From: an uncultured bacterium
GTDB taxonomy: Bacteria; Bacillota_I; Bacilli_A; Acholeplasmatales; Anaeroplasmataceae
Assembly: GCA_949293265.1 (NCBI GenBank)
Contig: CASFCK010000007.1
Location: forward strand, 1 to 64,000
Length of the DNA stretch: 64,000 nt
Direction of reading: 5' to 3'
A program made the translations under genes and the position numbers. The notes under the pieces are model-generated. The model was not told the DNA's origin. It did no database searches and was given only the letters and a program-made list of their open reading frames with translations. Positions 3,291-59,150 of this stretch are shown piece after piece (the stretch's first letter is position 1; the number at the start of each line of letters is the position of its first letter).

Positions 3291-3357
3291 ATGATGAAAA
3301 CCCTTTTATGTATTTTTAGATATAGGCAATTGTTAAGATTTGTGATAAAATAATAGC

Positions 3358-3428
3358 GTCTTATATAATAGCTATGATATGGTTAGCAAGTCTCTACCCT
3401 AGAACCGTAAATTTTAGGACTATAAGAC
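3358..3428 (+). promoter_or_regulatory. Guanine-class purine riboswitch aptamer
   Basis: The sequence matches the purine riboswitch core. P1 pairs GTCTTAT (3358-3364) with ATAAGAC (3422-3428). Conserved elements in order are TATAAT, GATATGG, CAAGTCTCTACC, CCGTAAAT and GGACTAT. The J3/1 base that sets specificity is C (GACTAT), which is the guanine/hypoxanthine type and not the adenine type (GATTAT); the U of CTCTACC that helps to recognise the ligand is kept. An extended -10 (TG-A-TAAAAT, 3343-3351) just upstream would start transcription near 3358. A terminator hairpin follows, so purine excess should stop transcription before purK. Confidence 0.93.
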
Positions 3429-3462
3429 AGATATACAATAGTATATCCTTTTTGCGTTTTGT

Positions 3463-27546: not shown

Positions 27547-27670
27547 CTTTCGAGCAAAAAATAAGGCGTTGAAGTGGGAGGTTGTTGACACACCGAAGAG
27601 CGTTGTCATACAGTGTGTTGAGTTTTTCCATGGAGCTAGTCTATGCTTGATTATAGGCGGAAGGAGAAAA
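27547..27670 (+). promoter_or_regulatory. Structured S10-operon leader
   Basis: The 130-base untranslated region before rpsJ contains paired segments such as GACACAC (27589-27595 area) with GTGTGTT about 30 bases later, and further GC-richer pieces unlike the AT-rich spacers nearby. Ribosomal operons of Firmicutes often have such leaders for autoregulation by a ribosomal protein. The frame is also open upstream of rpsJ but has no start-site support, so I treat it as RNA. Confidence 0.45.
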
Positions 27671-56373: not shown

Positions 56374-57420
56374 ATGCTTAGAAAATATTTAGATTATTTG
56401 CTGAACTAGGATGTTGTCAAAGCAAGAAAACCATTAATTATTTATGGGGCTAGACAAGTTGGAAAAACATATCTTGTTTTGGAATTATTTGCTAAAAAAC
56501 ACTATAAGGATAGATATTTAAGAATAGATTGTTCAAATGACTATAATTTTGTTAATTATATTTCTAATCATGACAGTTTAGAAAGCTTACTTGAATATCT
56601 TGAATTAAGATATAAGTTTAAACCAAGTGCTAAAAATTTACTAATATTTGATGAAGTCCAGGAATGTTTAGCTATTATTAAAATGCTTAAACATTTTTGT
56701 GAAAATAGAAGAGATATAAAGGTTATAGCTACAGGATCTTTAGTAAGAATTAAACTTAATAGAAACAGTAATAAGAATTTTTTATATCCTGTTGGTAAAG
56801 TTAATACTTTAATGATGTTTCCTTTAGATTTTGAAGAATTTTTGCTGAATTACGATAATGTTATTTACAATTATGTTAAAAATAAATATAGGAATAAAGA
56901 AGTAATAAATAAAGAAATACATGAAGAAATTTTAAAAATATTAGATATATATTTATTTCTAGGTGGGATGCCTGAAGTTGTTGATATATATTTACAATAT
57001 AAAGATAATAAAGTAAAGGCTTTTAATGAAGCAACGAAAGTTATTAATGAAATTTATGGTAATTATTTAGCTGATATGGAATTATACCAAGCTAGTAAAG
57101 AATCTATAATAAGATCAAGATTACTATATGATAATATTTTTAGTCAACTAAATAAAGAAAATAAAAATTTTAAAGTCTCTCAAGTTGTTGAAAACGCCAA
57201 AAATAGAGATATTATTAATCCAATATCTTGGTTACTAACAAGTATGGTTATATATAAAGCCAATTGTTTAAAAGAAATAGGTAGACATCTATTAATATCA
57301 AGTGAAGAAGGAATGTATCGTCTTTATTTAGCAGATATGGGAATTTTCACATATCAAAGTAAATTAAGTGCCCGTTCTTTTTTATTAGACGATATAATTA
57401 ATGATAATTTTTGTTACTAG
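56374..57420 (+). pseudogene. AAA-family ATPase (AAA_14/DUF4143) gene, broken and truncated
   Basis: ATG 56374 begins MLRKYLDYLLN and is stopped by TAG at 56407-56409, where relatives usually have Trp. The frame then continues with the P-loop YGARQVGKT, a Walker B FDEVQE, ATGSL sensor-like segment and GGMPEVVDIYL, but it ends at 57420 about 120 residues short of the neighbouring paralogue (57543-58868), so the C-terminal DUF4143 nuclease-like domain is gone. Translation from an internal start would lack the residues before the P-loop. Two lesions make it a pseudogene. It lies in tandem with its intact relative. Confidence 0.75.
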
Positions 57421-57445: not shown

Positions 57446-57527
57446 TTACAAAAAAATGTAAAAACACAATGTAAAACATTACAAAAAAATGTAATATATA
57501 CGTGTAAAACATTACAAAAAAATGTAA
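57446..57527. repeat. Array of three identical palindromes with 33-bp period
   Basis: The 16-bp dyad TTACAAAAAAATGTAA occurs at 57446-57461, 57479-57494 and 57512-57527, exactly 33 bp apart. Half-site-like GTAAAACA follows in the two spacers. The array fills the gap between the broken and intact AAA ATPase genes and ends 15 bases before the second start. The three-helical-turn spacing suggests cooperative binding of a dimeric protein on one face of the DNA. Confidence 0.85.
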
Positions 57528-57542
57528 AATGCGGTGATAAAT

Positions 57543-58868
57543 ATGTTGAAAAGGAAAATTGATGATTATTTAATAAAATGGAAAAAAAACGACAATAGAT
57601 TACCACTTATCATTTATGGGGCTAGGCAAATTGGCAAAACAACATCAATTAGAGAATTTGCTAAAAAAAATTATAAAAGCGTCATTGAGATAAATTTCAT
57701 TTCTAACCCTGAATGTATCAGTTTTTTTTCTAGTTTTAATATTGATGATATTATTAATAAAATATCATTTTATAATCCTGCGTTTAAATTTATACCAGGA
57801 GAAACATTAATATTTTTTGATGAAATCCAAGCTTTTATGGATGTGACAACTTCTTTAAAATTTTTTGCCTTAGATAAAAGATTTGATGTAATTTGTAGTG
57901 GAAATGCACTTGGTATCAATAATTTACATATTTCTTCAGTGTCAGTTGGTTACAAGGCGGAATATGTTATGCATAGTTTAGACTTTGAAGAATATTTGTG
58001 GGCCTTAGGTTATACAACTACCATGATAGATTTGTTAAAGAAACATTTATTTGAACTAGTTCCTTTAGATAAAGGGATCTTAGATGTTTTATTTAAACAT
58101 TATGATGATTATATGACTGTTGGGGGAATGCCTAAAATAGTTGATAATTATATAAAAACTATATTATTTGATGAAGTTTATTTATTACAAAAAGAATTAA
58201 GGAAAGATTATTTAGACGATATAAAACAATATGTAGATGGCTTAGATAAAGCAAAAGTAGCTAAAATATATGAAATGGTACCTTTACAGTTAGCTAAAGA
58301 TAATCATAAGTTTCAATTTTCTAAAATGGGGCATGGTGCTAGGTTTAGTTCTTATTTTGATTGTTTTAATTGGTTAAAAGATGCCGGAATAATTAATATT
58401 TTATATAATCTTAACAAATTAGAATTACCATTAAAATTAGAAATGCAAGATAATAATTTTAGGGTTTATTTTAGTGATATGGGTTTATTTATGGCTTTTT
58501 TAGATAAAAATAGTGAAAATATACTAAGAACAAATAGAGATTTTAATATTTATAAAGGAGCATTGTATGAGAGTGCTATATTAGAGTCATTATTAAAATC
58601 GGGATTTGAAAATATATTTTTTTATCGTTCTTTAGATTCTACTATAGAATTAGATTTTATCTTAGAATATTTCAATAACTTTATACCTATTGAGGTTAAA
58701 TCTAAGTCAGGTAGAACAAAATCTCTAAATAAAGTATTAGAAGAAAACAAAGAGATTAAACTAGCTATTAAATTAGCAAAAACTAATATTGGTTATAATG
58801 ATAGGATATTAACTATTCCATATCCTTTAGCTTTTTTAATTAAAGAATACTTAAATAAGACATTATAA
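57543..58868 (+). CDS. AAA-family ATPase with DUF4143 domain
   Basis: A 441-residue protein. The N-terminal ATPase has IDDYLIKWKKND, P-loop IIYGARQIGKTTS, Walker B IFFDEIQAF, a CSGNALG sensor segment and GGMPKIVDNYI. The C-terminal part has the DUF4143 pattern: YFSDMGLF, YKGALYESAILESLL and IELDFILEYFNNFIPIEVKSKSG, where E-x(n)-D and E-x-K look like a PD-(D/E)xK nuclease core. Function of the family is not settled. I use ATG 57543 behind GCGGTGAT; GTG 57534 is an alternative. Directly upstream is the 33-bp-period palindrome array. Confidence 0.8.
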   Translation: MLKRKIDDYLIKWKKNDNRLPLIIYGARQIGKTTSIREFAKKNYKSVIEINFISNPECISFFSSFNIDDIINKISFYNPAFKFIPGETLIFFDEIQAFMDVTTSLKFFALDKRFDVICSGNALGINNLHISSVSVGYKAEYVMHSLDFEEYLWALGYTTTMIDLLKKHLFELVPLDKGILDVLFKHYDDYMTVGGMPKIVDNYIKTILFDEVYLLQKELRKDYLDDIKQYVDGLDKAKVAKIYEMVPLQLAKDNHKFQFSKMGHGARFSSYFDCFNWLKDAGIINILYNLNKLELPLKLEMQDNNFRVYFSDMGLFMAFLDKNSENILRTNRDFNIYKGALYESAILESLLKSGFENIFFYRSLDSTIELDFILEYFNNFIPIEVKSKSGRTKSLNKVLEENKEIKLAIKLAKTNIGYNDRILTIPYPLAFLIKEYLNKTL

Positions 58869-58940: not shown

Positions 58941-58961
58941 ATTGACATAAAAATAAAAAAT

Positions 58962-59123
58962 GATAAGAGGAGCAAGACAAAAGAGTACTAATTGGAGGAG
59001 GCATCCTAGGAATTTTAGGAAAGGTAAGCTTGCCGAACGACTATTTAGGCATAAATAGCTCGTGGGGTTGTAGATAAGATCTACTTCACTCCTACTAATT
59101 TATTTAGTAGAGGCGCTTAAATG
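58962..59123 (+). promoter_or_regulatory. Lysine riboswitch (L box)
   Basis: The conserved core is readable in order: AAGAGGAGCAAGAC...AGAGTA, GGAGG, then AGGAAAGGTAAGCTTGCCGAACG, which corresponds to the AAAGG...GCCGAAG block of the lysine aptamer, and finally the GTAGAGGCGCTTA part near 59107-59120. Stems such as GACTATTTA/TAAATAGCTC (59040-59060) and GTAGATAAGATCTAC (59070-59085) lie between. A terminator and a competing stem follow. It precedes an amino-acid ABC importer, so the importer probably carries lysine and is shut off when lysine is plentiful. Confidence 0.88.
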
Positions 59124-59150
59124 TTTTTAAGTTATATTAAGTCTATTAAG

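What the first reader, a model, noticed from the sequence alone, without database searches (positions are those of the whole stretch)
57446..57527. Three perfect palindromes at exactly 33-bp spacing before an AAA ATPase gene
TTACAAAAAAATGTAA repeats identically at 57446, 57479 and 57512. Each centre is a run of A bases, which bends DNA, and 33 bp is about three helical turns, so all bends and dyads face the same way. The spacers are less conserved apart from GTAAAACA. Candidate roles: operator array for a dimeric regulator, or a binding site for the ATPase itself. Its gene starts 15 bases later.
Basis: partly seen in the sequence, partly recalled or inferred. Interest (0 to 1): 0.65.

Follow-up and report, generated by a model that had tools for sequence, protein, structure and literature searches.

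The report
Self-targeting operator array of PDC-S01 ATPases
Three identical DNA sites spaced exactly 33 bases apart sit in front of a candidate anti-phage ATPase gene, and most relatives of that gene in at least seven bacterial phyla carry their own differently spelled array at the same 32-33-base spacing, most likely so that the protein can bind there and control its own gene.

Summary
The array is real: TTACAAAAAAATGTAA at 57446, 57479 and 57512, exactly 33 bp apart, ending 15 bp before the ATG of a 441-aa AAA_14-DUF4143 protein. That protein matches PADLOC's phage-defence candidate PDC-S01 (AAA+ ATPase, predicted winged helix, PD-(D/E)XK domain). The array is a family trait. Of 193 non-redundant PDC-S01 genes chosen by protein similarity alone, 166 have a significant direct repeat before the start codon, and 163 of those have period 32-34; other genes in the same loci score 18 of 212, with scattered periods. 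Each gene has its own spelling (GGAATTTTGTGAT, GCCGAAAATGTGAT, TCGCTCATTTTTTTGTA and so on) of one grammar: variable left box, A/T tract, TGTRA. Paralogues in one genome differ. Site divergence tracks residues 226-280 best, the predicted winged helix. The array keeps a preferred register with the promoter in both Bacillota and Bacteroidota. Best reading: a same-face autoregulatory operator read by the defence ATPase itself. The palindrome is incidental: only 4 of 108 arrays, this one included, have inverted halves. Binding and repression are inferred, not shown. I found no description of the array in the open papers searched.

The parts
57446..57461 (+). array copy 1, TTACAAAAAAATGTAA
   Evidence: spacing 33
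57479..57494 (+). array copy 2, TTACAAAAAAATGTAA, preceded by TGTAAAACA
57512..57527 (+). array copy 3, TTACAAAAAAATGTAA, preceded by TGTAAAACA; ends 15 bp before the ATG
57533..57538 (+). likely ribosome-binding site GGTGAT (by eye)
   Evidence: sequence
57543..58868 (+). PDC-S01 gene, 441 aa, AAA_14 + DUF4143
   Evidence: Pfam, PADLOC PDLC04786 E=4.2e-135
57543..57977 (+). AAA+ ATPase core, residues 1-145; K32, D93, E94 invariant
57984..58160 (+). helical lid, residues 148-206
   Evidence: AlphaFold model
58161..58472 (+). predicted winged helix, residues 207-310 (presumed recognition helix 268-280); best predictor of site divergence
58479..58865 (+). PD-(D/E)XK-type domain (DUF4143), residues 313-441; D371, E384, K386 invariant in 79 sequences
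56374..57402 (+). neighbouring PDC-S01 pseudogene (in-frame TAG); no significant repeat in front of it

Best explanation
The array is an autoregulatory operator for the gene behind it. The PDC-S01 protein (AAA+ ATPase - winged helix - PD-(D/E)XK) reads a 16-18-bp, usually asymmetric site (variable left box, A/T tract, TGTRA) through its winged helix. Two to four sites at 32-33 bp, about three helical turns, place subunits on one face of the DNA so that they can bind cooperatively, probably as an ATP-dependent oligomer. They cover the promoter region (here down to a few bases before the ribosome-binding site) and hold a potentially harmful nuclease at a low, self-limited level. Each paralogue has its own site spelling, so several copies in one cell need not cross-regulate. 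Shown: the array, its conservation across the family, its spacing, its promoter register in two phyla and its covariation with the protein. Inferred: direct binding, repression, cooperativity, and the defence role.
For: 72 of 79 genes from GTDB genomes and 94 of 114 further Bacilli genes have a significant repeat; 163 of these 166 have period 32-34. Control genes in the same loci: 18 of 212, scattered periods. 131 of 137 spacings between motif copies are 32 or 33. Loci were picked by protein similarity, blind to the upstream DNA. Plasmid copies in Fusobacterium, Acinetobacter and Criblamydia also have period 32. Five S01 genes of the window's own genome have five different sequences at 33-34 bp, four of them individually significant. 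Site distance is best explained by residues 226-240 and 266-280; 0 of 100 within-cluster permutations reach the observed maximum; the top window lies inside 221-285 in 48 of 60 bootstraps. Promoter register: TATAAT starts 5 nt after the TGT of the last copy in Bacillota (14 hits, the commonest offset, 82 loci), TAnnTTTG 18 nt before it in Bacteroidota (11 of 22). The chain resembles 2qen, 2fna, CED-4/NLR and Orc1/Cdc6, AAA+ proteins with a winged helix.
Against: No binding or expression data. The winged-helix call rests on predicted secondary structure and on whole-chain similarity; folded alone that domain is of low confidence (pLDDT 67.7) and has no significant match. The covariation is moderate (partial rho about 0.23), cannot remove all relatedness, and for the left box alone the winged helix does not come first. 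The closest intact homologue (65%) keeps only one recognisable copy. 27 of 193 genes have no significant array. No strong sigma-70 promoter was found in the window's own array.
Confidence: 0.74

Rival explanations
1. The array is bound by a separate host regulator (or a nucleoid protein that likes A-tracts), not by PDC-S01.
For: A-tracts and TGTGA-like half sites are common targets of host regulators; no binding data exist for PDC-S01.
Against: Five S01 genes in one genome have five different site spellings, while near-identical spellings recur in different phyla with similar proteins, e.g. GGAATTTTGTGAT in Bacteroidota, Fibrobacterota and Clostridia. Site distance tracks one region of the S01 protein. 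A single host factor predicts the opposite.
Confidence: 0.1
2. The array is a set of tandem promoters: each unit holds -35 and -10 elements about 17 bp apart, and the repeats give strong or staggered transcription without any bound regulator.
For: Several units read TTGAAA-17/18-TATAAT or TAAAAT (L038, L131, L103). The spacing equals one promoter length.
Against: The conserved part is the spacer between the hexamers, not the hexamers; in Bacteroidota, with a different promoter consensus, the same array sits in another register. It does not explain private spellings per gene.
Confidence: 0.07
3. The array is the substrate of the protein rather than an operator: an iteron- or origin-like site, or a nuclease recognition site used in maintenance or mobility of the gene as a selfish single-gene element.
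For: Orc1/Cdc6-like AAA+ plus winged helix, many paralogues and pseudogenes, intact candidate nuclease residues, presence on plasmids and viral contigs.
Against: The array lies at a preferred register with the promoter and only in front of the gene; no terminal repeats or target duplications were looked for; chromosomal copies need no origin.
Confidence: 0.07
4. The array is a general repeat or chance AT-rich periodicity.
For: The region is AT-rich and A-tracts recur.
Against: 2000 shuffles never come near the observed score; control genes lack it; the exact site occurs three times in the genome, all here.
Confidence: 0.02

Closest known systems
RptR, repressor of a defence island (PMC12255303)
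   Same: [quoted passage not shown] repeats overlap the -10 box.
   Different: RptR is a small dedicated regulator that binds a 6-bp palindrome in 9-bp repeats. Here the candidate binder is the defence ATPase itself; sites are mostly asymmetric, about 16-18 bp, 32-33 bp apart, with a private sequence per gene.
DnaA autoregulation at the dnaA promoter (PMC8203912)
   Same: An AAA+ DNA-binding protein represses its own gene through several boxes in its promoter, with nucleotide dependence.
   Different: DnaA is a replication initiator without a nuclease-type domain; its boxes do not differ between paralogues and are not regularly spaced at 32-33 bp (own knowledge).
Restriction-modification controller proteins and BrxR/CapW
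   Same: Transcriptional control of defence genes at operators in their own promoters (PMC12255303 introduction; own knowledge).
   Different: Separate HTH or WYL regulators; no ATPase or nuclease-type domain in the same chain.
Archaeal Orc1/Cdc6 and its origin boxes
   Same: AAA+ plus winged helix, binding repeated boxes (2qby, 2v1u, 1w5t among the structural matches).
   Different: Replication initiator, no PD-(D/E)XK domain; membership is not claimed.
PADLOC PDC-S01
   Same: The gene itself is a clear member. It is reported as the fourth most common defence across prokaryotes (PMC12988326) and the most frequent single locus in rumen genomes (PMC13356809).
   Different: No upstream array was found described for it in the open papers searched; the paper that defined PDC-S01 was not in the library.

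Membership tests
PDC-S01 (PADLOC phage-defence candidate) | full-length match to the PDC-S01 profiles | tested here: met
   PDLC04786, residues 1-436 on 1-435 of 439, E=4.2e-135
PDC-S01 (PADLOC phage-defence candidate) | ATPase domain fused to a PD-(D/E)XK-superfamily domain (PMC12988326) | tested here: met
   AAA_14 and DUF4143 above cut-off; Walker residues and D371, E384, K386 invariant in 79 sequences
PDC-S01 (PADLOC phage-defence candidate) | protects against phage | not testable with these tools
Autoregulatory operator array | repeated sites overlapping the gene's own promoter | tested here: met
   for the family; in the window itself no strong promoter was found
Autoregulatory operator array | site covaries with the gene's own protein | tested here: met
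   moderate strength, relatedness not fully removed
Autoregulatory operator array | protein binds the sites and changes transcription | not testable with these tools
   needs gel shift and reporter
Palindromic operator of a dimeric regulator | inverted half-sites conserved in homologous arrays | tested here: not met
   4 of 108 loci; right half differs in relatives
General intergenic repeat | same array before unrelated genes in the genome | tested here: not met
   exact site only three times in the genome, all here
STAND/NLR-like or Orc-like AAA+ proteins | nucleotide-binding, helical and winged-helix domains in that order | tested here: inconclusive
   VIA Z 16.6 (2qen), 13.9 (CED-4), about 11 (Orc1/Cdc6); the middle domain alone has no significant match

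The most novel reading that the evidence does not exclude
PDC-S01 is a self-addressed switch. Every family member carries a private DNA address (a 32-33-bp-period array) read by its own winged helix. The promoter-bound oligomer is the resting form; loss of occupancy during infection both derepresses the gene and frees the nuclease, so that one gene is sensor, repressor and effector, and paralogues in one genome run in parallel on orthogonal addresses.
Probability: 0.25. Interest if true: 0.85.

Novelty: new variant of a known kind. Interest (0 to 1): 0.68.

Why it matters
PDC-S01 is reported as one of the most frequent defence candidates known (fourth most common across prokaryotes, PMC12988326; the most frequent single locus in rumen genomes, PMC13356809), yet no mechanism is established. 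A conserved array in front of most members gives a first concrete handle: a defined DNA ligand for each protein, a predicted reading domain, and hundreds of natural protein-site pairs from which a recognition code could be worked out. If the ATPase reads its own array, it would be a single-gene system that combines effector and self-regulator, and the array could be used to find and type such genes where annotation fails. The question is directly testable with one purified protein and one 120-bp fragment.

Tried and rejected
Palindrome as the defining feature: rejected, since only 4 of 108 arrays have inverted halves. General repeat: rejected. TTACA-N6-TGTAA as a genome-wide regulon: the other matches are near chance (11 on each strand against 6 for the pattern read backwards). 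Reverse test, arrays without the gene: a loose pattern (AAAATGTGAT twice at 32-33 bp) in 392 Bacillota genomes gave 6 places. Four lie at PDC-S01 genes or pseudogenes (three loci), one is a solo array with a ribosome-binding site and ATG but no ORF (L276), one precedes an uppP-like gene and looks like a different palindromic site (L273). On viral contigs the same pattern gave 16 places, two at PDC-S01 genes; by my rough estimate a few are expected by chance, several of the rest are coding or copies of one phage stretch, so no phage-decoy claim is made. Mean site distance of same-genome paralogues against cross-phylum close proteins differs only weakly (7.4 against 6.7 of 16), so it was not used as main evidence. 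Winged helix alone: no significant structural match. NCBIfam, solved structures by sequence: no useful relative. Rfam: no RNA family in the array. Archaeal members, though profile searches ring in archaeal controls, could not be fetched.

Full report
Observation. The three copies of TTACAAAAAAATGTAA are at 57446, 57479 and 57512, 33 bp apart. The repeat extends beyond the 16-mers: a 52-bp stretch matches itself at shift 33 with 44 identities, and 2000 dinucleotide shuffles of the region never score above 20 against the observed 36. The arms TTACA/TGTAA are complementary, but the A6 centre is not, so 'perfect palindrome' is an overstatement. The exact site occurs nowhere else in the 1.59-Mb genome. 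The last copy ends 15 bp before the ATG at 57543.

The gene. The 441-aa product has AAA_14 (PF13173) and DUF4143 (PF13635) domains and matches PADLOC's PDC-S01 over its full length (E=4.2e-135). A 79-sequence alignment keeps the Walker residues (K32, D93, E94) and the PD-(D/E)XK residues (D371, E384, K386) invariant. AlphaFold gives a confident model (mean pLDDT 89): AAA+ core, helical lid, a helix-helix-helix-strand-strand domain at about 207-310 that I read as a winged helix, and the nuclease-type domain. The closest solved structures are archaeal AAA+ ATPases 2qen and 2fna, then CED-4/NLR proteins and Orc1/Cdc6. The middle domain folded alone is of low confidence and has no significant match, though most weak matches are winged-helix DNA binders.

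The array is a family trait. The window's genome has about 18 AAA_14 genes or fragments. Five of its PDC-S01 genes, the window's included, have repeats at 33-34 bp, each with a different sequence; one is not significant alone. The pseudogenes tested have none. In 79 GTDB loci chosen by protein similarity only, 69 have a significant repeat within 150 bp of the start, 68 of them at 32 or 33 bp; of 212 control upstream regions from the same loci, 18 pass with scattered periods. In the enlarged set of 193 genes the figures are 72/79 and 94/114, with 163 of 166 significant periods between 32 and 34. A motif model finds mostly three copies per locus and 131 of 137 spacings at 32 or 33. The loci span Bacillota, Bacteroidota, Spirochaetota, Fibrobacterota and Kiritimatiellae; plasmid copies in Fusobacterium, Acinetobacter and Criblamydia have period 32 too.

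Grammar of the site. Ordered along the protein tree, the sites read as a variable left box, an A/T tract and TGTRA: GGAATTTTGTGAT, GCCGAAAATGTGAT, CGGATTATGTGAA, TCGCTCATTTTTTTGTA, TCGTCCTAAAAAGTGTAA, ATTACAAAAATGTGTAA. The window's site belongs to the last group: in 54-55% relatives ATTACAAAAA is kept but the right half is TGTG rather than TGTAA. Inverted halves are found in only 4 of 108 loci, the window among them. The dyad symmetry is thus a special case and not the basis of recognition in the family.

Who reads it. Spellings differ between paralogues of one genome and recur in distant phyla with similar proteins, which argues for the cognate protein and against a host factor. Across 108 loci the distance between sites is explained best, after allowing for the rest of the protein, by residues 226-240 and 266-280 (partial rho about 0.23). 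No within-cluster permutation of 100 reaches this, and 48 of 60 bootstraps put the best window inside 221-285. These residues lie in the predicted winged helix. The signal is moderate and relatedness is not fully removed.

How it works, most likely. In Bacillota the -10 box most often starts 5 nt after the TGT of the last copy, with a -35 box 17-18 nt upstream, so that the site fills the spacer; in Bacteroidota the TAnnTTTG box most often starts 18 nt before the TGT of the last copy. A preferred register with two different promoter types indicates an operator. Spacing of about three turns places all sites on one face. I infer a cooperative oligomer on the promoter that limits expression of a potentially harmful nuclease. 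Binding, repression and the link to phage infection are not shown.

Known or new. PDC-S01 is a named but, as far as the papers read here say, unvalidated defence candidate of great abundance (PMC12988326, PMC13356809). Searches of open full texts found no description of an upstream array; subscription papers and the defining PDC paper could not be read, so priority is uncertain. The nearest known arrangement is RptR, a dedicated repressor at three direct repeats before a defence island (PMC12255303), and DnaA, an AAA+ protein that represses its own gene (PMC8203912). Operator arrays are a known kind; a family-wide, privately spelled array apparently read by the defence ATPase itself is a new variant.

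Noticed in passing
window 58957-59126 (+): Lysine riboswitch (Rfam RF00168, 75 bits) directly after the PDC-S01 gene, before an amino-acid ABC transporter operon; ordinary.
   Followed up: yes
window 3341-3442 (+) and 27561-27663 (+): Purine riboswitch (RF00167) and S10-Clostridia leader (RF03136).
   Followed up: no
window 56374-57402 (+): A second PDC-S01 gene just upstream is broken by a stop and has no significant repeat in front of it; many PDC-S01 pseudogenes exist in this genus.
   Followed up: partly
L276:1435-1560 (G168:C8): Solo 32-33-bp array followed by a ribosome-binding site and ATG, then an early stop: possibly the relic of a lost PDC-S01 gene.
   Followed up: partly
L304:1250-1460 and L305 (viral contigs): Phage intergenic region with GGAATTTTGTGAT twice at 32 bp and several ATTCCGTCATATT copies, with no PDC-S01 gene found in the stretch; a decoy, a relic or chance.
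   Followed up: partly
L308, L311, L314, L318 (viral contigs): Several phage contigs share an intergenic AAAAATGTGAT pair at 33 bp in front of different genes.
   Followed up: no
L021, L166, L171, L013, L016: The sister ~400-aa AAA_14 subfamily has other repeats upstream, often long inverted repeats (e.g. CCGATTAAAT..ATTTAATCGG twice in L021), not the 32-33-bp array; not universal.
   Followed up: partly
L273 (G224:C38): TGTGATTGTAATCACA-type repeats at 33 bp before an uppP-like gene; probably a different regulator.
   Followed up: no
L025 (G000:C4:82986-83327): Another AAA_14 gene has a 23-bp-period repeat (ACCGATTATATTTTCCGAATTT) just upstream.
   Followed up: no
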